Under the pieces are notes generated by a model. It did no database searches. It was not told the origin of the DNA and saw only the letters and a program-made list of their open reading frames with translations. A stretch of DNA of 64,000 bases from Macrolepiota albuminosa (taxonomy: Eukaryota > Basidiomycota > Agaricomycetes > Agaricales > Agaricaceae). Shown piece by piece: positions 6,289 through 59,594 of this stretch. The stretch spans positions 63,811 to 127,810 of the forward strand of contig JAMWFC010000108.1 of NCBI GenBank assembly GCA_027475525.1. Direction: 5' to 3'. Each line of letters starts with the position of its first letter. Within the stretch, counting starts at the first letter, position 1. Both the position numbers and the translations under genes were made by a program.

Positions 6289-6442
6289 GGTGGCATACCT
6301 CCCAAAAGAGTTTTTGTGGCTTGAAAGGGGCATTGGCATCAGCAGCCATCAGCTGGCATCCGTCAGGTGGCATACCTCCCAAAAGAGTTTTTGTGGCTTG
6401 AAAGGGGCATTGGCATCAGCAGCCATCAGCTGGCATCCGTCA
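6289..6442. repeat. 77-bp tandem duplication
   Basis: 6289-6365 is repeated exactly at 6366-6442. Likely an untrimmed assembly overlap (see findings). Confidence 0.9.
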
Positions 6443-6765
6443 TGACCCACTGGCATCTGCTGGCATCTGTTGGCATTTACTGGATATCTGCTGGTATTTG
6501 TTGGCAACTCCCGGCATCATCCGGCATCGTCTGGCATCAGGGCGGGAGAGAAGGAAACAGGGTGCATGGGTGTCTGCCACATGGGGTGGCATCTCGGAGA
6601 GCGTGGAGGGTGGCAGAAGAGGGATGGGGGTGGGGAGAAAGAGGGGGAAGGAGGAAGGGGAGGAGTGTGGGTGTCCGCTGGTACGCCAGTGGATGTAGCA
6701 GACATTGGACGTCAGGTCAGAGGGGAGGAGGGAAGCAGGGTGCATGTGGTGGATGGGGGTGGTGT

Positions 6766-6919
6766 GTGAGGTAGTGTGGGGAGTGGAGAGGATGGCACTG
6801 GGGAGAAAGAGGGGGAAGGGTGGAAGAGGGTGCGTGAGTGTCGTGAGGTAGTGTGGGGAGTGGAGAGGATGGCACTGGGGAGAAAGAGGGGGAAGGGTGG
6901 AAGAGGGTGCGTGAGTGTC
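6766..6919. repeat. 77-bp tandem duplication
   Basis: 6766-6842 is repeated exactly at 6843-6919, in the G-rich end of R1a. Confidence 0.9.
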
Positions 6920-6969
6920 TACTGTCTGCTGGCATGCCAGCAGACGGTAGCTGATATCAGCAATGCAAC

Positions 6970-8388
6970 CAGTCCTAGTGGTTCAGTGAAATATTCATTT
7001 ATTGATATTCAATATTGTGTACAGTGGTGGGTTCTACTCCTCCTACTCCACCTTAACGGGGTCTAATGGTGTGTTTTTATATGGGTGCATTTTTGCTCTA
7101 CATATACATTGTACTGACCTGTAGTAAGCGCCTGTGGTAGTTGATCCAACCAAAACTCTAGAAATTACTGAAGTAGGATAGGATGGAGGAGTTGGCACAT
7201 GAGATCATTCCAGTATACATGACAAGTGACGATACACCAGGACTGGCTACCTTTTTTATAAAAACCAGCACAAAGGTAGTTGCCACAGTGCATCATCAAC
7301 TTGTCATGAGCACTGGAATGAACACACGCACAAACTCGTCCATCTTATGCCACTGCAGAAATTTCTGGAGTTTTCAACGGATCAAATTCATGACGCTAGC
7401 AGATGTCAGCGGCCTGCTGCTATTATATAATGTGAACTAGCAGGAGTCAAACCCGCTTCTTGTGCATAATATGAAATATCAATTTATGAATATTCCATTG
7501 TACCACAGGTGCTTACTACAAGTCAGGACAGTGTTCATGTAGTGCACAAATGGACCCATACAGAATTTGAACTGATAGAGAATTTACTGCAACTGGTGCA
7601 TCTGTATTGAATTGATAATATTAGACTGATATTTATTTACACCATAGAAGTATACAGGAAAGAGGAAAACCATGGGGTGTAGCAGAGGAATATTAGACTG
7701 ATATTGATGTATACCATAGCATTATACAAGTGTGTATGGTGTAGTGGAATATTCCAATTGGTATTCCTTGTATCTTGCAATAGGTGGGTTTGACTCCCCC
7801 TAGTGCATAAACATCAAACTGTCGAGAATTTTTGATGACACACAGAATATTAGACTGATGTGTATTTACATCATAGCAGTATACAGTAAGGATCAATGGT
7901 CTAGTAGAATATTATTCATTGGTATTTATTATGACTTGCAGTAGGTGAGTTCAATTCCTACTAGTGCATTGATATCAAACTGTCTGGAATTTTTGACCTG
8001 CTTAGCTAATTGTTATTTACTACACAGTATGATAAACAAAGTAAGGTCCTAATTTAAACAGGGTGATATGATATCTATTTTCAATATTTATTTACACTAT
8101 AATATTTTACACTAAGAACATATTGTGTAGTAGAATAATCTAAACTGGTATTCATTGTAGCTTGTACTAGGTGGGTTTGACTCCTGCTCAGTGCAATAAA
8201 CATTAAAACATTTGCAATTTTGGACCTGCTTAGCTAATTGTTATTTACTAAACTGTAAGATAAATAAAGTAAGGTTTGTCAAGCAATAAATCAACTATAG
8301 CAGTGTACAGTAAGCATCGATAGTCTAGTGGAATATTATCCATTAGTATTCATTGTGTGTTGCAGTAGGCAGGTTCGATTCCCACTAG
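6970..8388 (+). repeat. Field of tRNA-like SINE heads and AT-rich spacers
   Basis: Several units share a D-arm/A-box of the form TGGTnnAnTGG followed by GAATATTC, an AT-rich core with ATTGATATT, and a B-box such as GGTTCGATTCC, ending in CACTAGTG or similar. Plus-strand units start near 6985, 7730, 7890, 8130 and 8310, with a minus-strand unit near 7440-7515. No protein gene is supported here. The same field, inverted, occurs at 30960-31990, and again in plus at 23700-24870. Confidence 0.6.
8310..8388 (+). tRNA. tRNA-like SINE head with intact A and B boxes
   Basis: The A-box TAGTCTAGTGG (8321-8331) and B-box GGTTCGATTCC (8372-8382) are at tRNA-like spacing. The unit is cut in its CACTAG tail by the solo LTR at 8389. 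It is probably a pol III-driven SINE head and not a functional tRNA. Confidence 0.5.
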
Positions 8389-9154
8389 TGTCACGACCCC
8401 TCCCCTCCAGATCCACCCCAGGACACCCTCGGAACCCCATCCAGAACCCTCCCTCCAACTCTACAGAATGTGCCCTGCCATCACGACTATCAACACCGCC
8501 ATTACCTGGCACCCCCCAGCAACCCGCATCATGGGCCTGGGATCAACCGCCATCAACCCTGATCAACAATTGGATCATGCCAACCACTTCTATCAGATCA
8601 CACCAGCCACTCCCATGCCATCACGCATCATGACTCCCTCCATGCCAATTAATCACGCACTCCACATGCGTAATCCCGGTATACAGCCCCCTCCCACTAC
8701 TCAATGCCCCTGGGACTTATCCCAGACACTCCAGAACCCCAGAGACCTGGATTAGTACTTATAGTGTAAACCCCCATTGTATTCGCTAGTCTTGATATTA
8801 ACTTGAATTGTTGCATGCCCTCTGCTTGTTTGGTATGCGCTGACTGGCATGCTTTGACTAGCACGCTCTGAACAACCACGTGCTCTAAGTTTGGTATGCA
8901 CTTTGCAACTTGCAATTTGTTAACTTGGTCTCATCTCAGAACTCCTGGTTCCTGACTCGACCACCTCCCAACTCTCAGCCTCTAAAACCCAAAACCCCCG
9001 GACCAAGTTCCCTTCCCTGGGACCGCCTCTTGTCCACGTCTTGAACCCTGGAGTCCTAGCCCCAGAGTTCCAGACACCTGGGTATTCATAGATCAAGTCC
9101 ACCTTATAAGGGCTTTGCTTTCCCAGAAAGCCCCTGACTCAGCAGAACCTGACA
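8389..9154. mobile_element. Solo LTR, family S1 (766 bp) with 5-bp target duplication
   Basis: It starts TGTCACGACCCC and ends AACCTGACA (TG...CA). It is flanked by ACTAG at 8384-8388 and ACTAG at 9155-9159. A TATAAG motif lies near 9105. No internal region is present, so this is an LTR-LTR recombination product. It sits in the tail of a tRNA-like unit. Related scraps occur at 1-17 and about 21368-21538. Confidence 0.9.
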
Positions 9155-11604: not shown

Positions 11605-11949
11605 CCATCTTCTGTCCCTCCGCCAGTCTCTGCCAAGGACCCTCTCTCTGGCCCAAGAGGACGGGCTTGCAGCAACTCCCAAAGTAGTCAGCCACCGATG
11701 CAACAGACCGGATCATCCAGTCGGCTTACTGAGAGATGGAAGGCAAGAGAAGACAAGTGAAGATAGACAGTTTAAGATGGACGGTTTCTTATTGTACAAT
11801 TTTTTTTTGTTATGATAGACATTGCTACATTTTTGTAACACTATAGTTTACAAAAATACGGTTTCTTATTGTACAATTTTTTTTTGTTATGATAGACATT
11901 GCTACATTTTTGTAACACTATAGTTTACAAAAATGTCATGTAACATTTC
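11605..11949. other. Convergent 3' region between two KDZ-associated genes
   Basis: No gene seen. It contains a poly-T run and a 77-bp tandem duplication. Sequence around 11890-11990 matches (inverted) 30850-30950, the common 3' end of this gene family. Confidence 0.5.
11781..11934. repeat. 77-bp tandem duplication
   Basis: 11781-11857 is repeated exactly at 11858-11934. Confidence 0.9.
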
Positions 11950-12850
11950 CTCCTTCCCCACATCAATGATGGCAGACTGGTTGAATGACCTTAATGCGGC
12001 TGCTACTCCTGTTTGCTGGTGTAGACATATTAATGTATCGAGCTGCATCCTCCTGTAGCATTTGTGCTTGAGACTTGCAGAGTTGCTTGGAATTTACTCA
12101 ACATGCCCATCTTTCTAAATTGAAGCACGTCTGCATTGTCCACACACTTCAAACTGTGCTTTCAGGCCTTTCTAGAGAGACAACAATTAGAAAGCAGAAT
12201 CAAGCGGATGGATGTACAACAAATAGAGGATGGATGGGGGACGGAAGGAGTACCAACTTGCACTGAATTTCTGGTGGATTTCCTTTTTCGCTCCATTCTG
12301 CCACTATCTTCTGTAAACGACTTTCCTCCTGTAGTGTGAGTTGATGCATAACATTTTTGACAGCCACATTATATTGTGCAAATGCATCCAATCCTGAGGC
12401 ATTGTGATCCTTACCCCTCAACAAGTTCTGGATCTCCTCGTTTATCTCCTTTGCCATTGTCTGCCGGACAACATCTCGCAGTGAAGTTTTCAGGAGCACC
12501 TTTGGATGATCTCCTCGTTTATCTTCTTTGCCATTGTCTGCTGGACAACATCTCGCAGTGAAGTTTTCAGGAGCACCTTTGGATCTTTATGCTGGTAATA
12601 AGGGTGCCAGCAATTCTTGATATACTGGACAACCTTCTATTCAAGCAAATGATGTCTAGTTCTTTGCAATGAGTTGCTGTACCTACTTTGATTCTCTCTG
12701 CCCACTCTTCCCCTGTCTTTGGCTCTGTCCCCTTAGTGGCCTAGTAGTTGAAGATATTTGTTAGGATTTTTTCCTTCAAGATAGCAGTCTGAGCTTGAGG
12801 AGTAGTTGAGGAGCAGTAGAGTTCCCTGTATGGTTCAAAGATCAATCTTT
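11950..12850 (-). pseudogene. Remnant of a KDZ-associated hypothetical gene
   Basis: The best stretch is 12499-12200, which reads KTSLRDVVRQTMAKEINEEI and later LQKIVAEWSEKGNPPE. Upstream (to about 12640) the matching frame gives YIKNCWHPYYQHKDPK. The EEWN/SxxGPPPE-like ending is familiar to me from agaric hypothetical proteins near KDZ transposons, but I cannot name a function. The gene is broken by frame changes and by the 12431 duplication. It ends in the same 3' sequence as the gene at 29391-30857. Confidence 0.45.
12431..12584. repeat. 77-bp tandem duplication (two mismatches)
   Basis: 12431-12507 versus 12508-12584: period 77, differing at two positions (CTCC/CTTC and CCGG/CTGG). Confidence 0.85.
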
Positions 12851-13241
12851 CTTCTGCTGTAAATATCAGTTCCACTCATCTTTTCTTTGATGAAAATATT
12901 GGTTCAGGTGGTTGCAGGAGGGCAGACATGTTTGTAGACAATATAATTTTCTGCAACCACACAGTTCTCAACCAAAGGATCACATGATAAAATATACATT
13001 TCCGTTCAGTGTCTGTTGATGACAAATCTGCAACCACACAGTTCTCAACCAAAGGATCACATGATAAAATATACATTTCCGTTCAGTGTCTGTTGATGAC
13101 AAACAGATTCCATTTGTCTTCGACAGATAGGGTCTGCTGTCTGCTGGTATCTGGCCCATCCAAACTGGGGCATATTGCCAATATTGATGAGCAGTCTCAT
13201 TAGATCTCCAGTCCAATGGCTAGGTCCTGGCCATAGATATT
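12851..13241. other. Gene-free stretch upstream of KDZ copy 1
   Basis: No protein gene supported. It contains the 12950 duplication and scattered AT-rich sequence. Confidence 0.4.
12950..13103. repeat. 77-bp tandem duplication
   Basis: 12950-13026 is repeated exactly at 13027-13103. Confidence 0.9.
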
Positions 13242-16836: not shown

Positions 16837-17010
16837 AAATGGTGGATGCACAGACGGATTGAACTGATGGATGCAGCTTGCTGCCATCAGCAGATGATCG
16901 GAATGGATTTGTGACAGTCATGTGCAATGGAATTGTTGAAAATCACTTTTGTTTACAAGACACAAAAATCTGATACATAGCAGTATTCGCTTCTACAAGC
17001 AAGAGTGCAA

Positions 17011-19502: not shown

Positions 19503-19656
19503 GACATTGCAGACCACATTATTCAGTGATGCAGCCCCCAGATATGACAATACAAAGTTCTATGGCACATAGTCAGATCGACATTGCAGACCACATTATT
19601 CAGTGATGCAGCCCCCAGATATGACAATACAAAGTTCTATGGCACATAGTCAGATC
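19503..19656. repeat. 77-bp tandem duplication
   Basis: 19503-19579 is repeated exactly at 19580-19656, inside the intron part of KDZ copy 3. Confidence 0.9.
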
Positions 19657-22091: not shown

Positions 22092-22245
22092 CACATAGAG
22101 ACATCACAACGGTACGTGTCATACGTTGTACGGGAGCCCGCTTTGTGCTGTACCATACGTGTCCAGCGCACATAGAGACATCACAACGGTACGTGTCATA
22201 CGTTGTACGGGAGCCCGCTTTGTGCTGTACCATACGTGTCCAGCG
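22092..22245. repeat. 77-bp tandem duplication
   Basis: 22092-22168 is repeated exactly at 22169-22245, at the start of R1c. Confidence 0.9.
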
Positions 22246-22863: not shown

Positions 22864-23253
22864 TCCATTACTAATGGATAGATTCAAAGGTCGGATAACA
22901 CAATGAACGGACACCCACCTACGTTTCCGCAGGTTCCCGTATGGATTTTTTGAGGTGGAAGGGGGGTGGCATACCTCCCAAAAGAGTTTTTGTGGCCTGA
23001 AAGGGGCATTGGCATCAGCAGCCATCAGCTGGCATCTGTCGGAGTTCGTCGGCAGCCGTTGTGACCCGCTGGCATCCGTCGGCAGCCGTCGTGACCCGCT
23101 GGCATCCGTCGGCATCCGCCGGATATCCGCTGGTATCCGTCGGCAACCTTCAGCAACCCCCAGCATCGTCCGGCATCGTCCGGCATCAGGGCAGGAGAGA
23201 AGAAACAGGGTGCGTGGGTGTCCACCGCATGGGGTGGCGTCTCGGAGAGCGTG

Positions 23254-23407
23254 GGGGGTGGCGGAAGAGGGATGGGGGTGGGGAGAAAGAGGGGGAAGGG
23301 GGAAGGGGAGGAGCGTGGGTGTCCGCTGGTGGGGGTGGCGGAAGAGGGATGGGGGTGGGGAGAAAGAGGGGGAAGGGGGAAGGGGAGGAGCATGGGTGTC
23401 CGCTGGT
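23254..23407. repeat. 77-bp tandem duplication
   Basis: 23254-23330 is repeated at 23331-23407. Confidence 0.88.
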
Positions 23408-23452: not shown

Positions 23453-23606
23453 ATGTGGTGGATGGGGGTGGCGTGTGAGGTAGTGTGGGGAGTGGAGAGG
23501 ATGGCACTGGGGAGAAAGAGGGGGAAGGGATGTGGTGGATGGGGGTGGCGTGTGAGGTAGTGTGGGGAGTGGAGAGGATGGCACTGGGGAGAAAGAGGGG
23601 GAAGGG
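23453..23606. repeat. 77-bp tandem duplication
   Basis: 23453-23529 is repeated at 23530-23606. Confidence 0.88.
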
Positions 23607-24715: not shown

Positions 24716-24869
24716 ACAGAATGTCCTGTGGTCTAGCAGAATATTGTCACTTTATGTTCCTTCTAGTGCACAACTGGAGGTAATGGATCAAAACAGAATG
24801 TCCTGTGGTCTAGCAGAATATTGTCACTTTATGTTCCTTCTAGTGCACAACTGGAGGTAATGGATCAAA
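24716..24869. repeat. 77-bp tandem duplication
   Basis: 24716-24792 is repeated at 24793-24869. Confidence 0.9.
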
Positions 24870-24968: not shown

Positions 24969-27146
24969 TTACTTGTCCGATGTGTATTCCTCCTCTTCAT
25001 TAGATTCATGTAATGTGTCTGAATAGAACAAATCCTCATCAAGCAGGTAGTCTGCTGTCAAAAATGCAAAGTCATCCGGTGTATATGGCCCTTGAGGTCT
25101 GGAAAGTGTGATGTCTTCATAGTTTGCTATCAGGCCTGACGATGAAGATGGTGAGGGTGACTCTGACATATCAACAGACACATCATCAGTACGACTAGCT
25201 TGATTGAAAGGGCCAATGGGCCTACATTGACCATGTTTTGCTCTAGCACGAAATTCTTGTTCTGTTGAAATAAATTAACTATGATTACCAGTGCCAAATT
25301 ATACTCACGTTGTTGATACAATTCGTTAATTCTTCTCTGATCCTCACATCGAGTCATACGATTACCAGTGCCAAATTATACTCACGTTGTTGATACAATT
25401 CGTTAATTCTTCTCTGATCCTCACATCGAGTCATACATGTCTCATATTCCTCCCACTCCTGGACATTTTTACCAGTAGGTAGGGTTGGAGAAGGAGATTG
25501 TTGGAAGGGGGAAGACGGGATTTGAAGAGCCGTTACATCAAAAAGCGGTGGAAGATTTTCTTCGTCATCAGCTGCCATGCCTCCATCCGTCTCTTCTGCC
25601 ATTACAAGAAATAGCGGCAAAAGGTTTTCTTCGTCCTCAGTCGCCATACATCCACCGCTCCGGACTTCCGTTTGTCCGCCGTCATCGGCCGCCATGGTCT
25701 CCATCGCTGTTAGTCCTTCTGCTCCTTCACCAACAATGAATAGAGGTGGCAAAGAATCGTCGTCCATCTCCTCTTCTGCAGGAATGAACAAAGGGGGCAA
25801 ATCATTGTCTTCAGTCTCCTCTTCCGCAGGAATGAACAAAGGAGGCAAAGAATCCTCTTCCATCTCCTCTTGCGCAGGAATAAACAAAGGTGGCAAAGAT
25901 TTGTCTTCCATCTCCTCTTCTGCAGGAATGAACAAAGGCGGCAAAGATTCGTCTTCCGTCTCCTCTTCCGCAGGAATGAACAAAGGAGGGATACCCTCTA
26001 AGTCAGGGTCACTAATGGATGGATTAGAGATATCCACCTGGTCATTGTCAGTTTCCCCCAGCTCCCTGAATGTCCCACGGACATGAGCTGCTGGGGCGGA
26101 AGGAAGTTGGGATGCCGGTTGAACCACAACACAAGAGTTTTCCATTGTAGGGCCATACACCAGTCCAGGTTTACTCTGACTGTAGAGGTGGTGGAATGGA
26201 TGTTGTGCGCTCGAGGGTTCGATATGTGTCAAGGATGGCCATTGGGGAGAGTCGACATCAGGGAGAGTGGTAGGATGGGCCATGGAGAGGCAGTCTTGAG
26301 GATCAGGCTGCTCACTATCAATACTGTTGGTATGGGACTTGATGCCTGTCAATTGGCCCGTCCAAGCAGGATCCATGAACCTGGCAACGGAACTGACAAC
26401 GGAAGCAGCAACGGACTTGCTGCCAGCAAACAGGCGGATCATATCGTTGGCCGTTGGCACATGTTCTGTCCTATCCAGCGACCGCCACTTGTCTAGGGCT
26501 AGAAGCGTCCGCTGGTGGCCCCTGGTGGATCCGCTACCTACAAATACACAGAGCAAATTGTCTGGTGCTGGGATGGACACCAATCCATCGGATGGCAATG
26601 TCATGGGCAGCTGGCGGTTGCATGCCAAGAAGCTTTCAAAAGAGTGGAAGCCTTGCTGATGTACGAGAAGGCAATGCTCCAGCGTTTCATTGCTTAAGAC
26701 CTGAACATCCTCTCGGCCAATGTGGTTCCACCAATCACAGCCATACAGATTTCTAATAAGACCTTGACGGCCATCAACAAACTCCAGGATCTCTGTGGGC
26801 AAAGTTTGCTGATTTTGGAGAGGGAAAAATCAGCTCATGCTTTTGATAATGTCTGGGACATTGCAGACCACATTATTTAGTGATGCTGCCCTCAGATATG
26901 ACAATACAAAGTTCTATGGCCCACATTCAGATCATAATATATTTACATATTTTGAAGTTATCTTATCAACTCCTTGTTTAAATGCTGGATAATCCATGCC
27001 TCTTCCGCTTCAAGACTTGGCACAAGATTGCCAAATATGGAAAGTGCTGCAATGAGGCGTGACTCGATGTAGTCAACAACCTCTTGCAAATTTTCTAGTA
27101 CAGTAGCTTGGGACATGACATTGTGTGATACAGAGGTAGATGCCAT
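24969..27146 (-). CDS. KDZ-downstream acidic-repeat companion gene, copy 2 (best copy)
   Basis: Three exons on the minus strand. Exon 1 is 27146 to about 26970 (MASTSVSHNVMSQ to IQHLNKEL). The intron ends AAATCAG near 26816. Exon 2 is about 26815-25315, and a short intron starts GTGAGTATA and ends TTTCAACAG near 25260. Exon 3 ends YTSDK with its stop at 24969. Exon 2 begins QTLPTEILEFVDGRQGL and contains YGCDWWNHIG. A Pro/Ser-rich part precedes six tandem acidic repeats of about 19-20 residues with core LPPLFIPAEEE (25990-25720), then two weaker ones (LLPLFLV, LPPLFDV). A 77-bp duplication (25283-25436) spans the exon 2 end. The protein would be about 650 residues, acidic, with no membrane segment. 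I know no family for it. Its constant position after the transposase suggests it is part of the element. Confidence 0.6.
25283..25436. repeat. 77-bp tandem duplication
   Basis: 25283-25359 is repeated at 25360-25436. Collapsing it leaves one clean splice donor for the companion gene. Confidence 0.9.
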
Positions 27147-29390: not shown

Positions 29391-30857
29391 TGTCATACTT
29401 GACCCATGCTAACCGACCTACCTTTCAAGACTCCTTTCCTGACCTTGTTAGTGACCTCAACAAGAAGATGATGGATTACATGTCTGCTCTTCTTGGTAGA
29501 GACATGCTGTCCAACATGCAATCACCCCATGATTTGACTCCTCCTATCCTTACATGCCATGACCTCATCCTTGATCTGGATAGGGATGGATTCCCAATAT
29601 TACCAGCAGATCCAGGACCAAATATATTTCAAACTCGGGCAGAATTGGAAATGCTTGTCCGGGACTATCTAAATACTCATTACAGTGAATCCTAGTTTTC
29701 TCCACCTTTGCTCATCATCTGATCACTCCATCAGAAATTGCGTCTGGTTACCGTTATAAATCTGCTCCTTACAAGGCAGTGAGGACCAATGATCAGCAAT
29801 TCATACATTCAAGGTATCTTCCAGAGGGTCTGATATTCCAAGATCCTCATAATCTTGGTCGGCCTGAGCTATTGCGTCTGCTGAACTTCTGGAGAGACCG
29901 TCAAGGACAGTATGGATCCGGTGACACCTTCCGCTGGACGGTTTATCTCAACCGTCACAAGCAGCCAGTAGCTGCCGAGTACGGCACCCGAGCTGATCGT
30001 GAAAAAAATGTGGCAGCAGCAGCAGCACATAAGGCTACACGCAAAAATGGAGGGAAAAATCGGAAACAGAGGCCAACACCATCAGCGGTAGTCGATGGCA
30101 ACAGTAGGACCATTGCTAATGATGGAGCCGCTGATGGCGGATCCGCTTTAGTCACCGGATCTGCGGTAGTCGATGCAACAGTAGGACCATTGCTAATGAT
30201 GGAGCCGCTGATGGCGGATCCGCTTTAGTCACCGGATCTGCGGTAGTCGATGGCAACAGTAGATCCGCTTTAGTCACCGGATCTTCAGCCAACTTGGAGT
30301 GGCAACGGGGGCCTACACTTCCCCTGTCACCTAGCGTACCACACACACCACTGCCTGACTTACAGGAGGAACCTCCTGTCTTGCGCTCACCGCACACTCC
30401 CCAGCCTCAGCGCCACAACAGATCCACGGTTCACAACGAATCCCAACCAAATGTATCAGCTTCCGCTCACGATGAGTTCGCTCTTGACGAATCCGTTCAT
30501 GACGGATGTGTTGATGATACAGCAGTGGTAGATGCCACTACCATCCACCTCTTACAACAAAGAGGATGGAGCCATCCAGACCCTCCAATTAATGGCCCTA
30601 GTGATGGTTCCCCTAGATATAGAGTGTCAAGAAGGGTGCTCGACATTCTTCAAGATGAGGACAATGACCAATTTGAAGGTGAGGGAAGGCCGGCATTACA
30701 AAACCAAAAGAAGCGCAAGGCATTGCCTAACCAATTGTCAACAAATTCCAAGCGACCCCGCAAGTCTCAAGCACAAATGCTACAGGAAGATGCAGCTCGA
30801 TACATTGATATGTCTACACCAGCCAAAAGAAGTAGCAGCCGCACTAAGGTCATTTGA
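29391..30857 (+). CDS. KDZ-associated hypothetical gene, divergent from KDZ copy 2
   Basis: Exon 1 (29391-29695) begins MSYLTHANRPTFQDSFPDL. A second exon from about 29740 carries YRYKSAPYKAVRTNDQQF, LRLLNFWRDRQ and FRWTVYLNRHKQPVAAEYG. A Lys/Arg-rich stretch, a Pro-rich stretch and a basic C-terminus (KKRKALPNQ, SKRPRKSQAQ) follow, ending near 30857. A 77-bp duplication at 30099-30252 breaks the frame. Reading it once makes the frame continuous. The 3' end matches that of the minus-strand remnant at 11950-12850, so they belong to one family. No function recognised; the basic tail suggests nuclear or DNA-binding (inference). Confidence 0.5.
30099..30252. repeat. 77-bp tandem duplication
   Basis: 30099-30175 is repeated at 30176-30252. 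Collapsing it restores the open frame across the site. Confidence 0.92.
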
Positions 30858-31328: not shown

Positions 31329-31482
31329 GTCCTGACTTGTAGCAAGCACCTGTGGTACAATGGAATATTCATCAATTGATATTTCATATTGTGCACAAGA
31401 AGTGGGTCCTGACTTGTAGCAAGCACCTGTGGTACAATGGAATATTCATCAATTGATATTTCATATTGTGCACAAGAAGTAG
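31329..31482. repeat. 77-bp tandem duplication
   Basis: 31329-31405 versus 31406-31482, period 77, one mismatch near the end. Confidence 0.85.
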
Positions 31483-31936: not shown

Positions 31937-32090
31937 GAATATTCCACTGAACCACTGGGACTGGTTGCACCGCTGACATCAGCTGGCTCACATGCCGACA
32001 TCAGCTACTGTCCGAATATTCCACTGAACCACTGGGACTGGTTGCACCGCTGACATCAGCTGGCTCACATGCCGACATCAGCTACTGTCC
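31937..32090. repeat. 77-bp tandem duplication
   Basis: 31937-32013 is repeated at 32014-32090. Confidence 0.9.
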
Positions 32091-32145
32091 GCTACCGTCC
32101 GCTGGCATGCCAGCGGACAGCAGACACTCACGCACCCTCTTCCGC
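31990..32145 (-). repeat. Dispersed repeat R1, copy d, outer part
   Basis: Inverted R1 end (TGGCATGCCAGC palindrome, CACTCACGCACCCTCTTCC), interrupted by Gypsy-B. It continues at 40817. Confidence 0.75.
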
Positions 32146-36100: not shown

Positions 36101-37162
36101 ACATTTTTGGAACTCAGGTAACGAATTAGTTGCGCCCTGAGGCAACGTCGTTCCCCTCTGAGCACCCAGCGCACATCCGAAAGTCGTTAACGGCCTGGAT
36201 ATCATGGCTAATTTCCTCCCATCATATCCAGCAAACAGATCGCACAACCCATAGACCCCTCTCCCCACGAACCCCTCGGCAAAGTCGTCAACTCTTGGTG
36301 GCAAAGCAGCATCCCGTACCGTCACTTTATTTAACTCCTGTACATCTTGAACAATCCTAATTCCATTTTTCTTAGCGACAGCAAAGATTCTAGATCTGTA
36401 GGAAGCGGTGGACGGTTCGAACTTCCCTGCACGTTCCTGCGCCAACAAGGCTTCCCTAACTTGCTCTTCTATGGCCTTGGGAATCCTAATCGGTTGTTGA
36501 ACCCACGGGGTATGTTCGATCACTGGTATCTCGTAGTCGTCGAAATACTTGGGTGAGAACGTCCCTCGCTCCGAGTCATCAAAGGCTAATGCGTCCTCCC
36601 TCTGTGTCAACACGTAAACCAAGAGATCGATTTCCCTCGGCTGCAAGAACCCGTCCGGCACCTTCCCCACGATGCGATCTAGCCTTTCCCTTGACAATTT
36701 ATCTGTCGGAATAAAGTCCTTCAGAAATGGGGGATCTTTTGGCAAAGGCGGTGGTTCTTTAATCACTACCGGTCGAAAAACCTGCCCCTCCGGGTTGGGC
36801 ATGTAGCTAGGTACCGGTCGAACCTTTCGATCCACAGGTTTGTACTTCGTCCTTCGTTGTAGAACATTTGCTGATAAAATTTCGTTCCCTTCCCTAACCT
36901 CTTCCACCTCAAATACCCTCCTAGTCCACGGCGTCGTACGCGGTTTAATCGGTACTGACGACGAAAACGCCACCCTTCTCAACAACTCGTCGTAACTTTC
37001 CGGCGGATCTCTTTCCTCCAAATCCCATGTCTCCTCCTCCTCGCCACCAGACTCATCGCCATGACCAATTACATAACTCCCCACCATAGCATACAGACTC
37101 TCCCCAAGGCGTGGAATAGATGCGGGCTGATTTTCAGGCCTTGGTCCCGCACCCACATTCAA
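33128..37162 (-). CDS. pol: Gypsy-B pol polyprotein (RT, RNase H, integrase)
   Basis: Replicates and inserts the element. The open frame is 1344 codons. Reverse transcriptase spans about residues 225-480: KKNGIRIVQD, LCDLFAGYD, TLPQGATNS, and the active site FVDDVGI near 373-379. RNase H spans about 545-670: GVDSCKNGAGW, SQPKCELYG, VDVDAKF, GPDGLSR. Integrase has the zinc region H-x4-H (AHNDTGHRG, near 917-922) with C-x2-C (CNICQ, near 952-955), then D982 in LDTVHMG, D1040 in FITDGG and E1075 in IVERAHK. The C-terminal part has a GPF-like SGPFIVHRK block and no chromodomain. The first codon of the open frame is TTG. The frame overlaps the gag TGA in the -1 frame, so pol is probably made by -1 frameshifting or reinitiation. 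No internal stop. Confidence 0.95.
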   Translation of the reverse strand: MNVGAGPRPENQPASIPRLGESLYAMVGSYVIGHGDESGGEEEETWDLEERDPPESYDELLRRVAFSSSVPIKPRTTPWTRRVFEVEEVREGNEILSANVLQRRTKYKPVDRKVRPVPSYMPNPEGQVFRPVVIKEPPPLPKDPPFLKDFIPTDKLSRERLDRIVGKVPDGFLQPREIDLLVYVLTQREDALAFDDSERGTFSPKYFDDYEIPVIEHTPWVQQPIRIPKAIEEQVREALLAQERAGKFEPSTASYRSRIFAVAKKNGIRIVQDVQELNKVTVRDAALPPRVDDFAEGFVGRGVYGLCDLFAGYDGRKLAMISRPLTTFGCALGAQRGTTLPQGATNSLPEFQKCVDHTIKEEKEARPPNGNGFVDDVGIMGPKSWYGGEEIAPGIRRTIYEYATILDRFFARFIEAGITASGNKLILATPKLNIVGSVVSMEGWHLERGLVSRIEKWLIPSDVSDVRSFLGTAGVGRRWIRNFSLVAKPLTLLTRGVDKEFYFGEGECQAMDTIKNLITTAPVLIVIDYKDARKHSKVTTSREGDLHGLVVVGVDSCKNGAGWILQQYRGEEKKPALFGSCTFNETESRYSQPKCELYGLFRALKALRHRIWGVYFRVDVDAKFLVEMIQNPDLPNAPMTRWILYISLFDFNLKHVPAQSHQGPDGLSRRKKADDDSEDSDSEEFLDRFVGEVSSRLSYDVAACLSNDGEETDWRTGQLKHLVEHVRRMPKTPCATFVTSSKAIFMLLFGVTTKRRSFANDGVGSDKQNMMSVSLALSAMSDPFVFLGREFCRRRRKVEKEIQVQWGEEVVSLSVIQSVWGTGFDESVGEEVSCAKHKFGLKDEEPEGVWTEIRVYLQSLRIPKWCTTEKERSAFIKNSKRYFLYGDKLWLVPIKGRQPRLVVERKERRRELIAEAHNDTGHRGRDATYKTLFDRFYWPNLYDDVAYFVRSCNICQLRSRTRPKVAFSPTWSAAILRYFCLDTVHMGDGHGGKRYLLQGMEPAIGWPEARASKRADSVSWGKFMYEDIICRFGHIPAFITDGGKEFLGAAEYIYKQYGLTVIVSSPYHPEGNGIVERAHKTLCDSILKACGRDSGKWPLFVEAGLLAMRTTTSRMTGHTPYFLLYGREPFFAFDIADITWEALDWDQVRSTEELLATRMRQLVRRDEKLVIALERQKAARLKAVAAFNDKFAKTLSSGEFEEGTWVLVHETWLEGQKGHKFALRWSGPFIVHRKLWDTTYQLRELDGSVKRDSIAANRLKVFYFREEFQTVKTVGVIVKTEDESRHKRGERSAIWQSFMDNVHLRGAHSLIGDMVGDADIPLAFLNVEWLTQAVATSPDDGVIV

Positions 37163-39770: not shown

Positions 39771-40816
39771 TGTGGACGTGGGTTGGAGTACCTGATGGAT
39801 TCGACGAGAGAACGAAAGAGTCGGGAAGAGAGGCCGAAGGTGAAAGTCGAATTGAATGGGAAAATGGGGAGATGTGAAGTACACGTAAAGTACTGCACGT
39901 CGCGTCGTGACGAAGTTCGTGGACCAGTCAAAGAAAAGCACCAGCAAGAATAAAAGAAACAAGCGTAGTCAAGCTCTAGACAGGTTCCAGTAGAGAGAGT
40001 AGAAGCGACAGCTCAGTAGTGGAGAACACAAGACCCCAGAGAACCGCGAGAATAGAGAAGCCGTGAAGATTAAACAAGCCGAGAAGCGAGCCGCAGTAGA
40101 CGAGAATCAAGCCGAAGCAGAGAGATCAAAGTCCCGAGTTGCCGAAGTCAGTGTCAGGATAGACGGAACACAAGACTGACAGAGACAGAGCCGTGACAGA
40201 GAAGATCACCAAGAAGCCGAGAAGAGCCGAGTACGCTGCCGAAGACAGCGAGCACGCGGAGTTTGACGTCGGACCGAACGTCTACAAAGACAGAACCGAG
40301 CCGAGCGAGACGATACCTAAGACCAGACCAGATAGCGACGAGACAGAATTACGAGGCGCACGAATCAAGCAGAGCTCAAGACCGAAAGATTATGGGGTGT
40401 AGAAACCTATTCTATTGGTATGTTTTTCTCGCCTCTTATACGTATTATACACATTCTTGGGATCGACGATTCATCCCCAGAGTTCCTCAATATCGACGAT
40501 CCCTCCCGGATTTTGTTTTCGACCGCTGGTCGGTCTCATAATCCCCAAACTTTAATTTCTTCTTGCCCCAATCGCACTCCCGATTTCCCAATACATCCGT
40601 ACTTCCCTCATTGCAAGCCTACTTCGAACGTTACCTCTTTATTCTACATCGCACTCCCGATTTCCCAATACATCCGTACTTCCCTCATTGCAAGCCTACT
40701 TCGAACGTTACCTCTTTATTCTACACGCGCTTGTCATTTCCGTAGTCGAATCCCATTTGCCTTTCGTTCCTTCGTATCAGCCCGATTCTATCAACAGTCT
40801 CCCTTCTCCTACCACA
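39771..40816 (-). repeat. 5' LTR of Gypsy-B (1046 bp, includes a 77-bp duplication)
   Basis: Same as 32146-33114 except for 77 extra bases (40571-40724 duplication). The length difference 1046-969 is exactly 77. Confidence 0.92.
40571..40724. repeat. 77-bp tandem duplication
   Basis: 40571-40647 is repeated exactly at 40648-40724. It is absent from the partner LTR. Confidence 0.93.
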
Positions 40817-46110: not shown

Positions 46111-46687
46111 CTTTACTATGTTAATATTTGATATCTGCATACGCCAGAATGTAGCCACTGTTGGGTCTGTTTTAACACATTCTCTACACCTACTTAGTCC
46201 GTAATGTTCCAATTTTATTTGGCTGACGTTCTTTCCTTGCCAGATGTATTGGATGTCTAGTCGACCCATAGATCCAGCGGTCTCTGAAAAATAGGACTAT
46301 TTCGATGACTAGTTGTGAGTCTTTCTATGTCCTGCCTGGTACAGGCATGACAGGACACAATATTAGATCGCAGATAATAGCCGCCACACAAAAATCATAT
46401 ATCGGAGCAGACACATGCATTATGACTTATTTCCTTGGCTGCCTTATGTGGAGAGCGATCCCTGAATACCAGTGCTGATATACCCCCCGAAAGATTCAGC
46501 ATATCGCCACTATCTAATGAACACCTATTGTCACTTGAGAGGTCTGTTATCCAGCACAATAGATATATGACAACAACTCATTGATTTACTAGATCATGGC
46601 AATTACTGATTTCGACAGTCTGCCATGTGACAAGCCATCATTACAACTGATTATTAATGCACCACAGCTTAACATGGAGCAACAACG

Positions 46688-46841
46688 GGCTATGCTCAAA
46701 GTTAAATATTCTTATTCAGACTCTTCCGACAGTTATTCGGATTCCCATACTACTTACTTCAGAGGGCTATGCTCAAAGTTAAATATTCTTATTCAGACTC
46801 TTCCGACAGTTATTCGGATTCCCATACTACTTACTTCAGAC
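46688..46841. repeat. 77-bp tandem duplication
   Basis: 46688-46764 is repeated at 46765-46841. Confidence 0.9.
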
Positions 46842-46922: not shown

Positions 46923-47076
46923 TACAGGTTGCCACCACCGTATCATTGACATCATGATTCCAAGTATCTCCTCGCCTAAGCAGAGGTATTTATATGCTTT
47001 ACAGGTTGCCACCACCGTATCATTGACATCATGATTCCAAGTATCTCCTCGCCTAAGCAGAGGTATTTATATGCTT
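46923..47076. repeat. 77-bp tandem duplication
   Basis: 46923-46999 is repeated at 47000-47076. Confidence 0.9.
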
Positions 47077-47096: not shown

Positions 47097-47250
47097 TGTA
47101 CTACTCGATTTGATGTCTTCTCCAATCCGAGCTTCTCTATGTTGTCCCACTATTTTTTCCTTTATGTCTTTATTGTACTACTCGATTTGATGTCTTCTCC
47201 AATCCGAGCTTCTCTATGTTGTCCCACTATTTTTTCCTTTATGTCTTTAT
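47097..47250. repeat. 77-bp tandem duplication
   Basis: 47097-47173 is repeated at 47174-47250. Confidence 0.9.
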
Positions 47251-47425: not shown

Positions 47426-47579
47426 CAGCATTTTCAAATGCTGTTACGGACTGGGGTTTTGTTGTTTGCACTAGCAAGACATACGGTCAAAGACACCCAA
47501 CACAGCATTTTCAAATGCTGTTACGGACTGGGGTTTTGTTGTTTGCACTAGCAAGACATACGGTCAAAGACACCCAACA
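47426..47579. repeat. 77-bp tandem duplication
   Basis: 47426-47502 is repeated at 47503-47579. Confidence 0.9.
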
Positions 47580-48400: not shown

Positions 48401-48554
48401 GCTCTTATAGATTAAACGTCTTTAGTGGAACGGTTTCATAATAATAGTAGAAGACCCTTTATTAATCATTTGTATCGGCTCTTATAGATTAAACGTCTTT
48501 AGTGGAACGGTTTCATAATAATAGTAGAAGACCCTTTATTAATCATTTGTATCG
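48401..48554. repeat. 77-bp tandem duplication
   Basis: 48401-48477 is repeated at 48478-48554. Confidence 0.9.
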
Positions 48555-48909
48555 GTACAGCTAATAATTACATTAATACTTCACTACTGAGGCCATATCT
48601 CCCCTGTCTGAAGACTTTTTTCTATCGGAAATTGATACATTGGAAATGGCATAATAGTTTTCCTTTTCACTCCTTTTTTTTTTTATTCCCCTACACTGTT
48701 TAATACTTCAAGTTTCTGATTGTGATAACGTAGGCTTGTTAAATACAATTGATTATTAGCAATGAAACATTGTCAGTATCACACCGTCCTGATGTATAGC
48801 CTGTTAGTCCAATGTAGTACACTATATACATCTGTAGTACACTATATACAACGTTCAACTATATACAGTACGACATATACAATGAACAACATTTAGGGTT
48901 TTGAGCAAG

Positions 48910-50421: not shown

Positions 50422-50555
50422 TAGGACCCCATACAGGATCAGCGCATCAACGGCAGGCTACGGCAACACGGCACAGGTTCAGAATACCTTAGCGCACGCT
50501 AATTAACCAATTTTGGCAATATTTGACGGCTGCACATGGCAAGAAGCAGATCCAA
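50422..50555 (+). repeat. Type-1 LTR, left fragment (split by Gypsy-A2)
   Basis: TGATAGGACCCCATACAGG matches the start of the LTR at 4975. The match stops at AAGAAGCAGATCC where the Gypsy-A2 LTR begins, and resumes at 63684. Confidence 0.85.
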
Positions 50556-51703
50556 TGATGACGCCAACTGTGGTTGGGTGCGCTGGATGTATACGCAGTA
50601 CAATGCCGTCTCCAGCGCTTGGCGTGCATAGTTGTGAGGAGTCCTGACAGGGTCCCGGTGTGCTCGAGTGGAGGTAGTAAAACGATGCGCTAGATTATAG
50701 CGCTTCGGGGGCTACCTGGCAGACGGTAAGCGTCGTAGTTTAGGCAAAGATATTTAAAACGATGCGCTAGATTATAGCGCTTCGGGGGCTACCTGGCAGA
50801 CGGTAAGCGTCATAGTTTAGGCAAAGATATTGGAGAAAAGACGAATAGCGCAGCGTATTGTGCCCGTAGGTGGCACCGTAAACGATGAAGACGAGATAGA
50901 CGAAGCTAGCGCCTGACTTAGTGACGAAGTCGAAGGAAGCTAGCGCAAGTTGAACGCTAAGTGTAACTGTGTGTTTGAGGGGTTACGATTCGTTGTTATA
51001 TACATGTAAAGTAGCTATTTTATATACTATGCGCTACCGTGTTTGCCAAGATACGAGCCCATCTGCGGCGCTACCTCCTAGCGCCTCTCCTCGTGGTTTC
51101 CTCTAACAGCGACCTGTCAACGGCGACCTTTTGCACATGGCTGATGGCGACCAACGGCGTTATGACCCACGGCGACCAGCGGCGACTCTATATTGACTTA
51201 GAATTGTACGAGTCTGCTCACTTTTACTATATCTCCGATTGGCCAGGCTGTTCCGGGGTATGGTCGGAAAATCCTCGACAGACACCGTGAGCGCTAATGT
51301 CAGCGCTACTCATTGTATTAGTTCCTGGCAGGTCCAGATGTTGGATTTAAGTATATCCAGTGCCGCCATCATTGATCCTTTTAGACTTCTGATTGAAGTT
51401 CCTCGTCAAATGGCAGCGCCTGCTGCTGGCTCCTTCTGGAAGTGATCGGGGTTTAGTTAGAGTCCTCTCCCGCCATCGTGTTAGCGCTATATGTTATGAG
51501 CCCCCTTCATCCTTGGGCTAGGTGAAAGGAGTGTGCTGAAGGCCTGGTAGCTAGGGGTTAGGATAAATTTCCACATCCTGTAGTAATTTGCCAGAGCTAG
51601 AGCTGCTCTATATTCCCAACTGGTCGCTAGAGTCCTGAATACGTCAAGTGTTGGTTGGCCTATAATGTCCCTTGATGCGCTCAGTCCGAGTAGAAGCCTA
51701 TCA
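50556..51703 (-). repeat. 3' LTR of Gypsy-A2 (1148 bp, includes a 77-bp duplication)
   Basis: Plus strand TGATGACGCC...GCCTATCA, i.e. TGATAGGC...GGCGTCATCA in element orientation. It pairs with 62613-63683. The 77-bp length difference equals the duplication at 50678. I saw only a handful of substitutions. Confidence 0.9.
50678..50831. repeat. 77-bp tandem duplication (one mismatch)
   Basis: 50678-50754 versus 50755-50831, differing at CGTCG/CGTCA. Absent from the partner LTR. Confidence 0.9.
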
Positions 51704-51850: not shown

Positions 51851-54369
51851 ATGTCCACTCCTTTCGATGCCTCTGCTCTTCGCAATTTCCTGGCTAAGGC
51901 CTCTTATTTATTTGATCGCGCTAAGTCTGTCAGTCCCGCCGATGCGCCACAAGCCGTCCCTGGCATTATGCAACTCTACTGGCGCTGGCTCATGGTCCGC
52001 GGCTCTGACAGTTCCTGGGAGTGGGGTGCCGAGGTTCGCGAGTGGTGTGTGGCCCGGTACCGTGAGTACGAAGGTGCCGATTGGTTGTGCCCTTTTGCAG
52101 ACCTTTTTGTAAGCTTCTAAGTTTGATTTTGGGTTCGTGGCGCTAAGGTTCAGTGCTCATACTAGGCTCCTTCTCTATCCGACGAGATTGACGCCCTGCT
52201 GGCTAGTACCGAGGTTGGCAAAGTGAGTTCCCTCCTCCTCTTCCTCACATTTTCCATGTTAACCCTGAGTAGTCGGTTGCTACGTCGCCCACCGTTGCCA
52301 GCCTTCCTAGTGCCCCATCGGCCCCTACCGTTCCTTCTGCTCTGGCCGCTCCTGCTGCTCCTGTTTCCGTTCTGCCTCCTCCCATTCTTGGTAGTCCTTT
52401 TTGTGGCGATGCTTCTCCCGTTTGTCCTGCACCCATCGTTGCTTCTCCCACTCGTACTGCGCCTCCTCACTCGGCCATCAAACGGATTGCCGTTACCGCC
52501 AGTGAGCCCCGGCCCGGGCTTCTCCCACTCGTACTGCGCCTCCTCACTCGGCCATCAAACGGATTGCCGTTACCGCCAGTGAGCCCCGGCCCGGGCCTAC
52601 CCATACTATTTCTCGCCTTCCTCCCCGTAACTTTGCCGTTGTCATTAATCGTGCGCCCCCTGCTCTCGCTAGCCCTCCTAAACGTACCGTGCGTCCTTGT
52701 CTTCTTGCCTCTAGTTCTTCTACTAACTCTGCTTCTTAGGTCAATCTCCCCGCTCGTGTTGCCCCTTTGTATGTCGTAAGTGTTTCCTTTTAAGATCGCT
52801 TGTCTCTAGCGTCTGATCGAGTCCTCCTTAGGTGCCCAACCAAACTATGTTTACCGATGCGGAGCTTCATGATCTGTTGTGCCTTCGTCGCAATACTACT
52901 GTTATTGATACCGGCCTCCCGGCTGGTGTCCAAGTACTCGGCGCTAAGAAGAAGGTTACAGTGGCACCCGTGGAGTGCCGCGCTTTTAGGGTGAAGATTG
53001 GTGCGGTAAGTGCTTGTTTGTCCCTGAAAGGTTGATGACGTCGCTAACTTCTTTCCCAGTGCAATAAATGCTGGTCTGAAAACGATCCTGAGGGTTGTTG
53101 GTTTTCTACCGCTTCTCTTCCCTGCTACCGCTGCAATGCGTTGAAACGGGGCTGTGTCTTCAATGGGATTCGTACTCACGAATGCGGTAGAGATGCTATC
53201 ATGCAACGCAATTACGAGCACGCCGTCTTAGTTCGTAACGCCCGAGCCTTTGTGCTGCAGCAACATGATCTGGCCGCTACTCATCAGCCCACTGTGATTA
53301 GCGCTGCAAGTCTAGCGCTTCCCATCACCCAAGATGGTACCACCGTGGCAAGAGTCCCGGTAAGCGCCGGGAGCTAGCGCCTGCTACTCCCGTGGTCTTG
53401 TCTTCTACCGAGTCGTCTACTGATGAGGGCGAGCATACCGAGAGGGATGCTGAGGGCGAGGATGACGATGAGGCTGGGCCTGTAGTCGACACCGATGCAC
53501 TATTAGCGGTACGCGCTCTTCTGCTTCGCATTACTTCCCCTATCGCCGCTAACCCTTATCAGAGTGGCCCCAGTGGTAATTGGTGCGTAGTCTTCGAGTT
53601 CTCCTTGTCAAGTTGCGCTAACCTCTTTGTCGCCAGATCCCCTACTCCTTCGCTTCCCGTCGTCGTGAATATCCCTCCTGCCGAAGATGTCGTGATGTCT
53701 GTTGCCGGCGCTACCTCTGCTCCCGAAGCTGTCGTGGCTAGCGCCTCCCCCGTTGCCCTTCCTATTACACCATCTCTTACCCCTCCTCATAGCCTCTCTT
53801 CTTTCCCCAGTACTCGCGAGTCCTCTACCGCGCCTGAGTCTGAAGGGACCTTAGTAGCTCAGGGCGAGCGCCGCCGCCGCTGGAGGTATTTGCCTTCCTA
53901 TGGCATCCGCCTTTCTTCTGCTAGGGCCATGTCCCCAGGCGATGAGCGCCATGAATAGACCCCCCGTGCTTTCGTAACCGTTCGAGTAAGTCTGCATTTT
54001 CCTAGTTAGTTCGCCTTTCTGCTGACCTCCGCTAAGTTCGATCCTTTTTGGACTCCTCCCCCCGCCATGCGCGTTTCCGGCGATGCCTATCCTTGGCTTG
54101 GGGATGAGTTCTCTTATCCTGTCACTCCCCTTCGTCCTGCCGCCGATCTCCATCAACAACTTCGCCAGGTCGAGGACGCGACCGACGTCATCGGTAGCGA
54201 ACTCGCCCTCCTCCGTCCTCATGTCTCCACCTTAGCACGCCGTGAGCTCCTCCTGCTTGAGCTCCATGACGACATCACTGATGCGCTTGAGTGGCAAGCG
54301 AGTAACGCCATTCAAGACGGGGACTTGCTTCCATTGGGTGATCCCGCTCCCTCCGCGTCTGATGCGTAG
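51851..54369 (+). CDS. Antisense multi-exon cysteine-motif gene of Gypsy-A2
   Basis: Counterpart of 2527-4805. Exon 1 is 51851-52108 (MSTPFDASALRNFLAKASYL ... EVREWC, ADWLCPFADLF), with intron 52109-52165. Exon 2 is about 52166-52222 (LSDEIDALLASTEVGK), with an intron to about 52270. Exon 3 is Ala/Pro/Ser-rich and includes a 77-bp duplication at 52441. Then VNLPARVAPLYV as a small exon. The next exon (52832-53006) reads MFTDAELHDLLCLRR, then an intron ending TTCCCAG near 53060. The cysteine exon reads CNKCWSENDPEGCW and CYRCNALKRGCVFNG, then HECGRD. A 1-nt frame break lies near 53345. An acidic block (TDEGEHTERDAEGEDDD) and a C-terminal exon from about 54067 (GDAYPWLGDEFSYP) follow, with stop near 54369. 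Unknown function. CxxC...CxxC spacing suggests zinc binding (inference). Confidence 0.65.
52441..52594. repeat. 77-bp tandem duplication
   Basis: 52441-52517 is repeated at 52518-52594. Collapsing it keeps the Ala/Pro-rich exon in frame (AVTASEPRPG then PTHTISRLPP). Confidence 0.92.
53062..53200 (+). other. Conserved cysteine motif of the antisense gene family
   Basis: C-N-K-C-W-x2-N-D-P-E-G-C-W, then C-Y-R-C-x2-L-K-R-x-C. It is shared almost residue for residue with about 3700-3600 on the minus strand. Six cysteines in CxxC-x8-C and CxxC-x6-C arrangement. Confidence 0.75.
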
Positions 54370-55614: not shown

Positions 55615-55768
55615 TCTGGCGCTGTTAACCCGGTTAGTATCATATCATGCCAGAACCTTCCCTCCTTCTTGATGACCCCGTACTCGTTCACTCTGGCGCT
55701 GTTAACCCGGTTAGTATCATATCATGCCAGAACCTTCCCTCCTTCTTGATGACCCCGTACTCGTTCAC
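55615..55768. repeat. 77-bp tandem duplication
   Basis: 55615-55691 is repeated at 55692-55768. It duplicates the start codon region of antisense gene 3. Confidence 0.92.
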
Positions 55769-57837: not shown

Positions 57838-57991
57838 ATTCATGCTAGCCAAAGGTTGAATGTCTGGATTCTGGAGCATTCCTTTGATGTAGCGTGCGTC
57901 AACTTCGACAATCAATTCATGCTAGCCAAAGGTTGAATGTCTGGATTCTGGAGCATTCCTTTGATGTAGCGTGCGTCAACTTCGACAATCA
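57838..57991. repeat. 77-bp tandem duplication
   Basis: 57838-57914 is repeated at 57915-57991. Collapsing it rejoins the RNase H frame. Confidence 0.93.
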
Positions 57992-58860
57992 AGTTTTGAA
58001 CCCCAATAAGATACATGCGCAGCGCCTGGAACGCTCGAAACAATCCGTATAATTCCAGTTTGGGCTGACTATAGCGCGACTCTCTGTCATTAAGGGTAAT
58101 TGATCCGAAGCAATTGTAGCGTCTGATTTTTCGATTTGCGCTATCACATTGACATAAAAAGAAGCCGACCGCGATGTAAGAGGTGTCAATGGCAAGTATA
58201 ACGGGATTGGATGTAGTATAATCGATGGGTACCAATGGCTTCGCTTCCTGCAGCGCCTTCACTAAGTCTTTTTGGGCGTTAATTTGGTCGGGTCCGAATT
58301 CGAAGGGGACCCCTGAACAAGTTAAGCGATTTAGCACATGCGCTCAATGTGAAAAATGGTGTATGAACATGCGCAGCACGCCTACCGTGCCTAGAAACAC
58401 GCAAACTTCCGAGAGGTTATGGCAGACTCCCCACTTCTCTAGAAGCGCTAATCGGCTCTCCTCAGGGATCCTGCCTTCTGGCATGCAAACGTGCCCTAAA
58501 ATTTTAAATTGTGGTACGCAAAGAACCAACTTGTGTCCTGAAAACGTCCCACCACAATATTTCATGCGCTGGAGCACCCGGTTGACCAACTGGAAGAAGT
58601 CCCATAGCGCCATGCGGATATTAGGATTTTCTGGATGCACTTTGGGCTTGCCATCTACAAGGCACCAATCTTTTGGGCCCTTAATGCCAACGTCGTCGAT
58701 AAAGCTAAGCACATGGTGGGGTATTTCGGGTTGTAGAATAAATGTAATGTCGTCGTGGAATATGGGTACCGAATTAGTCCATCCCATGGGAAGTATAACC
58801 AGTCGTAGCGCTCTGAATGGCGTTTGGAACGTCGTTAAGTCGCAAGAGGCAGGGTGAATT

Positions 58861-59014
58861 AAGCGCTCGTCATAGCCAACGTACAGATCCAGGGTAGCGC
58901 CACATATTCTTCCCGTGAACGATTCAGCGACATGATCAAGCGCTCGTCATAGCCAACGTACAGATCCAGGGTAGCGCCACATATTCTTCCCGTGAACGAT
59001 TCAGCGACATGATC
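58861..59014. repeat. 77-bp tandem duplication
   Basis: 58861-58937 is repeated at 58938-59014. Collapsing it rejoins the RT frame. Confidence 0.93.
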
Positions 59015-59440
59015 GGGGAAGGGCGGTACCCCTGAATGACGAATCGTGACTTTGTTTAGCGGTTCCAAACTATGAACTATACGTAGCTTTCCATTTTTCT
59101 TCAGTACACAAAACCATCGTGACCAGTATGCCGAATTGGAAGGCTCGTAAACTCCTGCCGCTATTTTGGAACGAATAATTTGGCAAACTTCAGCTTCAAT
59201 ACCCGGTGGTATAGGTCGGTTATGCTCGGTCCAAGGTACGTGAGGTATCGTTGGTATAACCACTGGTGGAAAGAAGTCAGTTCTCAGTTTACCGCGTTCG
59301 GAATCCTCCCAAGCAAATGCCTCGTTTTGTTTTCGCATAATGTCGGTCAATACATCTAGTTCCGCCGTCGATAGAAAGCCTGTATCGTGGGCGCTAAGGA
59401 ATAGCGCTTGTCGTTCTTCCGTAAATCGTCCGGTAGGCTC

Positions 59441-59594
59441 AAAGGGTGGCGGGTTCGGATTAAGCTCGGGAAGGGTCGCTAACGGGTCTCCAATGATCTT
59501 TCTTTCGATGCAAAATTAAAGGGTGGCGGGTTCGGATTAAGCTCGGGAAGGGTCGCTAACGGGTCTCCAATGATCTTTCTTTCGATGCAAAATT
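59441..59594. repeat. Tandem duplication of 76-77 bp
   Basis: About 59441-59517 is repeated at 59518-59594. Collapsing it rejoins the frame between the protease linker and RT. Confidence 0.9.

What the first reader, a model, noticed from the sequence alone, without database searches (positions are those of the whole stretch)
6289..59594. Twenty-six tandem duplications with a 77-bp period in unrelated sequences: untrimmed k=77 assembly overlaps
I measured the period at 6289, 6766, 11781, 12431, 12950, 19503, 22092, 23254, 23453, 24716, 25283, 30099, 31329, 31937, 40571, 46688, 46923, 47097, 47426, 48401, 50678, 52441, 55615, 57838 and 58861, plus about 59441 (76-77). In each the second copy starts 77 bases after the first and is usually identical. 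They lie in LTRs, pol genes, introns, SINEs and AT-rich spacers alike. No biological duplication mechanism gives one fixed 77-bp length in unrelated sequence. 77 is a standard de Bruijn k-mer size, and neighbouring graph segments overlap by k. Collapsing the copy restores open frames at 30099, 52441, 57838, 58861 and 59441. The paired LTRs of both complete gypsy elements differ in length by exactly 77.
Basis: partly seen in the sequence, partly recalled or inferred. Interest (0 to 1): 0.92.

Follow-up and report, generated by a model that had tools for sequence, protein, structure and literature searches.

The report
Untrimmed 77-base assembly overlaps
Scattered 77-letter stretches of this fungal genome are printed twice in a row, most probably because pieces of the computer assembly were glued together without removing their overlap, so this is an artefact and not biology.

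Summary
In detail: 26 tandem duplications, each with period exactly 77. In 22 the two copies are identical; 4 differ by 1-2 transitions. One site, 30098, lies in a natural 78-b repeat and is ambiguous. The assembly (organism probably near Termitomyces) carries the scar elsewhere: 35 more in twenty 10-kb stretches, in 8 of the 20. Run lengths fit '77 plus chance extension', no array has three full copies, and the smallest spacing is 148. Other genomic copies of the same repeats hold the unit once: 154 of 163 local pairings and 125 of 125 split alignments counted at six sites (unsplit alignments not counted). Scar-rich stretches have many near-identical copies. A scar-free repeat with 1,367 candidate copies has only 80-88% identical ones. 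At 8 of 10 testable scars the first base outside the unit is polymorphic among copies; the mean at distances 2-40 is 2.8 of 10. This fits K=77 de Bruijn-graph contigs joined without trimming. No reads or graph could be seen, so the program and the step are inferred.

The parts
6289..6442 (.). 77-b tandem duplication, identical copies
6766..6919 (.). 77-b tandem duplication, identical copies; the same unit is also doubled at L006:127
11781..11934 (.). 77-b tandem duplication, identical copies
12431..12584 (.). 77-b tandem duplication, 2 C/T differences
12950..13103 (.). 77-b tandem duplication, identical copies
19503..19656 (.). 77-b tandem duplication, identical copies
22092..22245 (.). 77-b tandem duplication, identical copies
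23254..23407 (.). 77-b tandem duplication, 1 G/A difference
23453..23606 (.). 77-b tandem duplication, identical copies
24716..24869 (.). 77-b tandem duplication, identical copies; single in 35 of 35 split alignments to genomic copies, 4 unsplit ones not counted
25283..25436 (.). 77-b tandem duplication, identical copies; single in 26 of 26 split alignments, 11 unsplit ones not counted
30098..30252 (.). 77-b tandem duplication (run of 78) inside a natural 78-b tandem repeat of the KDZ-type element; the one ambiguous site
31329..31482 (.). 77-b tandem duplication, 1 G/A difference near the end of the unit
31937..32091 (.). 77-b tandem duplication (run of 78), just outside the LTR that begins at 32145
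40571..40725 (.). 77-b tandem duplication (run of 78) inside the LTR 39770-40816; single in the partner LTR 32145-33114
46687..46840 (.). 77-b tandem duplication; single in 10 of 10 split alignments counted
46923..47076 (.). 77-b tandem duplication; single in 15 of 15 split alignments counted
47097..47250 (.). 77-b tandem duplication; single in 13 of 13 split alignments counted
47426..47579 (.). 77-b tandem duplication; single in 26 of 26 split alignments counted
48401..48555 (.). 77-b tandem duplication (run of 78)
50678..50831 (.). 77-b tandem duplication, 1 G/A difference, inside the LTR 50554-51703; single in the partner LTR 62611-63683
52441..52596 (.). 77-b tandem duplication (run of 79)
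55615..55768 (.). 77-b tandem duplication, identical copies
57838..57992 (.). 77-b tandem duplication (run of 78) in retroelement coding sequence, read in two frames by overlapping ORFs
58861..59014 (.). 77-b tandem duplication in retroelement coding sequence, read in two frames by overlapping ORFs
59441..59594 (.). 77-b tandem duplication in retroelement coding sequence, read in two frames by overlapping ORFs
32145..33114 (.). LTR, 970 b, partner of 39770-40816 (1047 b)
33200..36200 (.). scar-free part of the same element; nearest copy in the assembly is 86% identical

Best explanation
Each duplication is the overlap between two neighbouring contigs of a de Bruijn graph with K=77. In such a graph two segments that meet at a branching point share exactly one K-mer: the first ends with it and the second begins with it. 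Inside families of near-identical transposons the short-read contigs broke at these points. Later they were put in order (for example with long or linked reads) and joined end to end without cutting off the shared 77 bases, so the shared K-mer is printed twice. Shown here: fixed length, exactly two copies, occurrence elsewhere in the assembly, single copy in paralogues, preference for near-identical repeats, polymorphism at the bases next to the unit. Inferred: the assembler type, the value of K as a program setting, the joining step, and later base correction as the source of the few mismatches.
For: 26 runs at offset 77 and at most 2 at any other offset from 10 to 599. Twenty further 10-kb stretches hold 35 more; among arrays of about two copies there, 32 have offset 77 and 1 has offset 70. 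Of 84 arrays in hand, 73 are perfect, with run lengths 77:44, 78:18, 79:8, 80:2, 82:1 against 40.0, 20.8, 8.1, 2.8, 0.9 (81 b) expected from chance extension; 0 of 84 have a third full copy; the smallest of 68 spacings is 148, above K. Paralogues: 154 of 163 pairings single, plus 125 of 125 split alignments. LTR partners differ by 77. Scars follow near-identity: stretches with 4-5 scars in about 2 kb have many copies at 95-99%, while a scar-free stretch with 1,367 candidates has copies of 80-88% only and the scar-free element body has a nearest copy of 86%. Adjacent-base polymorphism at 8 of 10 testable scars, against mean 2.8 and maximum 7 at distances 2-40. L005:1977 and L006:2034 are doubled at the same place with 0 differences within each pair but 2 between the loci, so the doubling was not inherited.
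Against: 10 of 83 complete arrays have 1-2 differences, which an exact K-mer overlap would not have; this needs a later correction step. The adjacency test rests on only 10 scars that share paralogues, and in the looser set 16 of 39 show it. The shared unit at window 6766 and L006:127 has its nearest differences at -3 and +2, not next to the unit. The only other exact copy of the 24716 unit, on C122, has the same adjacent bases. A scar-free stretch has one 99% copy, so not all branch points scar. In L026 the stretch with three scars has scored copies of 81-95% only, 40 of 3,683 candidates being scored. In-hand 31-mer sharing did not separate the 20 stretches (Spearman 0.25, p 0.29), though the comparison set is small. 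Site 30098 lies in a natural 78-b repeat. No paper describing this assembly was found.
Confidence: 0.95

Rival explanations
1. An artefact, but of another step with a fixed 77-b overlap, for example a gap filler, a contig merger or local reassembly that pasted overlapping pieces, and not the main assembly graph.
For: Runs of 100 N stand in two fetched loci, so a scaffolding step took place; not every near-identical repeat is scarred; 10 of 83 arrays are imperfect.
Against: One fixed length in all arrays and the adjacent-base polymorphism point to graph nodes. The difference from the best explanation is one of bookkeeping and both make the doubling spurious.
Confidence: 0.04
2. Real tandem duplications made in the fungus by a mechanism with a 77-b ruler.
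For: None beyond the sequence itself; two pairs of loci are doubled at the same place.
Against: The units are unrelated in sequence. Doubling does not follow descent: paralogues are single and LTR partners differ. Copies within a pair are identical while surrounding paralogues differ by several percent. No third copies. Scars are missing from divergent repeats.
Confidence: 0.005
3. A natural minisatellite. For 30098 alone: the KDZ-type element carries a 78-b repeat (26 codons) there, and the window copy could be a three-unit array with a one-base loss.
For: L006:3669 has period 78. Of 40 scored copies most span the place without a 77-b break.
Against: The period in the window is 77, not 78, and 25 other sites show no such natural repeat in their paralogues.
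Confidence: 0.005

Closest known systems
K-sized overlaps between neighbouring contigs of de Bruijn-graph assemblies (SPAdes-type; 77 is a usual largest K for 150-b reads; recalled, no call)
   Same: Fixed length equal to K, exact copy, positions at branching points of near-identical repeats.
   Different: Normally the overlap is trimmed when contigs are merged; here it is left in, internally, thousands of times if the samples are representative.
Natural tandem duplication by slippage or unequal exchange
   Same: Head-to-tail copies.
   Different: Natural ones vary in length and copy number and are inherited; these do not.
Target-site duplications of transposons (recalled)
   Same: Fixed length per element.
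   Different: They are short and flank an insertion; here nothing lies between the copies.

Membership tests
Untrimmed de Bruijn-graph overlap | One fixed unit length throughout the assembly | tested here: met
   84 arrays at offset 77 in 64 kb plus 226.9 kb of loci, without L001 which repeats the window; other near-two-copy arrays with runs of 40 or more are rare: one at 70, and one at 78 which is natural
Untrimmed de Bruijn-graph overlap | Exactly two copies and node spacing above K | tested here: met
   0 of 84 with a third full copy (81 had room on both sides); smallest spacing 148
Untrimmed de Bruijn-graph overlap | Exact identity of the two copies | tested here: inconclusive
   73 of 83 complete arrays identical, 10 with 1-2 differences, all 11 transitions
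Untrimmed de Bruijn-graph overlap | Unit single in homologous copies | tested here: met
   154 of 163 pairings; 125 of 125 split alignments counted
Untrimmed de Bruijn-graph overlap | Unit is a branching node: neighbour base differs among copies | tested here: inconclusive
   8 of 10 strict cases against mean 2.8 at distances 2-40; 16 of 39 in the looser set; some single cases do not fit
Untrimmed de Bruijn-graph overlap | Assembly graph has K=77 and segments end here; reads hold one copy | not testable with these tools
   No reads or graph available; methods paper not found
Biological tandem duplication | Inherited by descendant copies and diverging with them | tested here: not met

The most novel reading that the evidence does not exclude
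A living mechanism with a 77-b ruler doubles short stretches of near-identical transposons in this mushroom, afresh in each copy, without regard to sequence.
Probability: 0.005. Interest if true: 0.9.

Novelty: not a real feature. Interest (0 to 1): 0.12.

Why it matters
If the samples are representative, the assembly holds thousands of such scars: 14 in the sixteen stretches away from the window (L013-L028) would mean about 9,000, and 35 in all twenty about 18,000, or some 0.7-1.4 Mb of spurious sequence. They shift reading frames (77 is not a multiple of 3), make intact transposons look broken, fake tandem repeats and distort LTR comparisons. A search for one repeated offset is a simple test for such scars in any assembly.

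Tried and rejected
Chance: rejected. Satellite or minisatellite: the units are unrelated; only 30098 overlaps a natural repeat. Inherited duplication: rejected by paralogues and LTR partners. A shared motif at the breakpoints was not tested statistically. Repeat content of the 20 sampled stretches by shared 31-mers within the letters in hand gave no clear separation (L009 with 10 scars shared none), so copy number was looked up in the whole genome instead for chosen stretches. Rfam and ARAGORN found nothing in the window.

Finding the assembly's own paper: L014's tetraspanin piece is 92% identical to Termitomyces sp. T32_za158. The one Termitomyces genome paper of which I read passages and the outline (PMC10021994) describes a Canu/PacBio assembly of 70 Mb in 64 contigs, not this one (100.1 Mb, 129 contigs). 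Searches for a matching paper and for printed reports of K-sized tandem scars gave listings with nothing I could use; those papers were not opened. One paper search of 10 and one genome search of 12 were left unused.

Full report
What was checked. The window was compared with itself at every offset from 10 to 599. Offset 77 carries 26 runs of at least 20 matching bases; no other offset carries more than 2. In 22 the copies are identical; four differ by one or two transitions. The units have no common sequence by eye.

Not only this window. The window is C54:63811-127810 of a 100.1-Mb assembly in 129 contigs. Twenty 10-kb stretches, placed at round coordinates on C54 and six other contigs, hold 35 more arrays in 8 of the 20; twelve have none. 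Seven loci fetched as copies of a window repeat hold 23 more. Of all 84 arrays, 83 are complete and one is cut by the end of a stretch. Of the 83, 73 are perfect, with run lengths as expected for exactly 77 bases plus chance matches at the edges. None of 84 has a third full copy and the smallest of 68 spacings is 148. Other near-two-copy arrays in the sampled letters are rare: one of period 70 and one of period 78.

Not inherited. For each array I aligned its left part and its right part to homologous copies among the letters in hand: 154 of 163 pairings show a single unit, 9 show a doubled one. The 9 come from few loci. L005 and L006 are doubled at the same place, identical within each pair but with two differences between loci; L002, L007 and L008 lie a few bases off their partners; window 6766 and L006:127 share the same unit; the L003-L002 pairing was not confirmed as the same place. 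In the whole genome, split alignments at 24716 and 25283 show one unit in 35 of 35 and 26 of 26, with 4 and 11 unsplit alignments left uncounted. At 46687, 46923, 47097 and 47426 it is 10 of 10, 15 of 15, 13 of 13 and 26 of 26 among the row pairs that I took from the table; unsplit alignments such as those on C65 and C43 were left out. The two LTR pairs differ in length by 77.

Where scars occur. Stretches rich in scars have many near-identical copies: the KDZ-type element around 24.3-25.9 kb (pieces of 94-99%), 46.6-48.6 kb and L009. L026 is mixed: its first 326 bases have 98-99% copies, but the part with three scars has scored copies of 81-95% only, 40 of 3,683 candidates being scored. Scar-free stretches: the element body 33.2-36.2 kb has a nearest copy of 86%; L014 has two partial copies of 92-93%; L024 has 1,367 candidates, those scored being 80-88% identical; L028 has one copy of 99% and no scar. 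The last case shows that two-copy repeats can be resolved without a scar, as paired reads would allow (inference). High copy number alone does not bring scars; near-identity over 77 bases does. This is a property of the K-mer graph and not of any biological process I know.

The branching-node test. In a compacted graph the shared K-mer is a node where the next base differs among copies. Among exact 77-base, mismatch-free arrays with alignable flanks on both sides (10 of 44), 8 have a difference at the first base outside the unit; at distances 2-40 the mean is 2.8 and the maximum 7. In a looser set, 16 of 39 have it. The test is small and its cases share paralogues, and single cases do not fit, perhaps because copies or a second nucleus are missing from the assembly (inference).

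Mismatches. All 11 differences in the 10 imperfect arrays are transitions, as are nearly all neighbour-base differences among paralogues. Correction of one of the two printed copies with reads from another repeat copy would give this (inference).

The exception. At 30098 the element has a natural 78-base repeat: L006 shows two units with period 78. The window shows two units with period 77 and a partial third. Most of the 40 scored genomic copies span the place in one alignment of 957 bases against 1,001. The period of 77 still favours a scar, but this site alone would prove nothing.

Organism. A tetraspanin piece from L014 is 92% identical to Termitomyces sp. T32_za158, so the genome is probably of Termitomyces or a close relative. 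The assembly's own description was not found.

Verdict.

Noticed in passing
window 29688-30310; L006:3610-3865: A natural 78-base (26-codon) tandem repeat in a KDZ-type element; copy number and length differ between genomic copies (957 against 1,001 bases).
   Followed up: partly
window 18132-18308 and 25735-25986: 48-base tandem arrays inside long ORFs of the KDZ-type elements (acidic 16-residue repeat). In L004 and L006 runs of 100 N stand beside such sequence.
   Followed up: partly
window 14878-18342 and 25701-29328; 20189-21367: Two inverted copies (92%) and a third partial copy of an element with CxC2 and KDZ transposase domains.
   Followed up: partly
window 32145-40816: Retroelement with LTRs 99.9% identical over 879 bases and long open frames; nearest relative of a 3-kb part in the assembly is 86%.
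   Followed up: partly
L009:1-1810: Contig C54 reads N for its first 1,810 bases; masking or a leading gap could not be told apart.
   Followed up: no
window 19170-19291, 23031-23187: 10- to 40-base degenerate tandem arrays around the word GGCATCCGTC, also near 6.3-6.5 and 41.1-41.2 kb.
   Followed up: no
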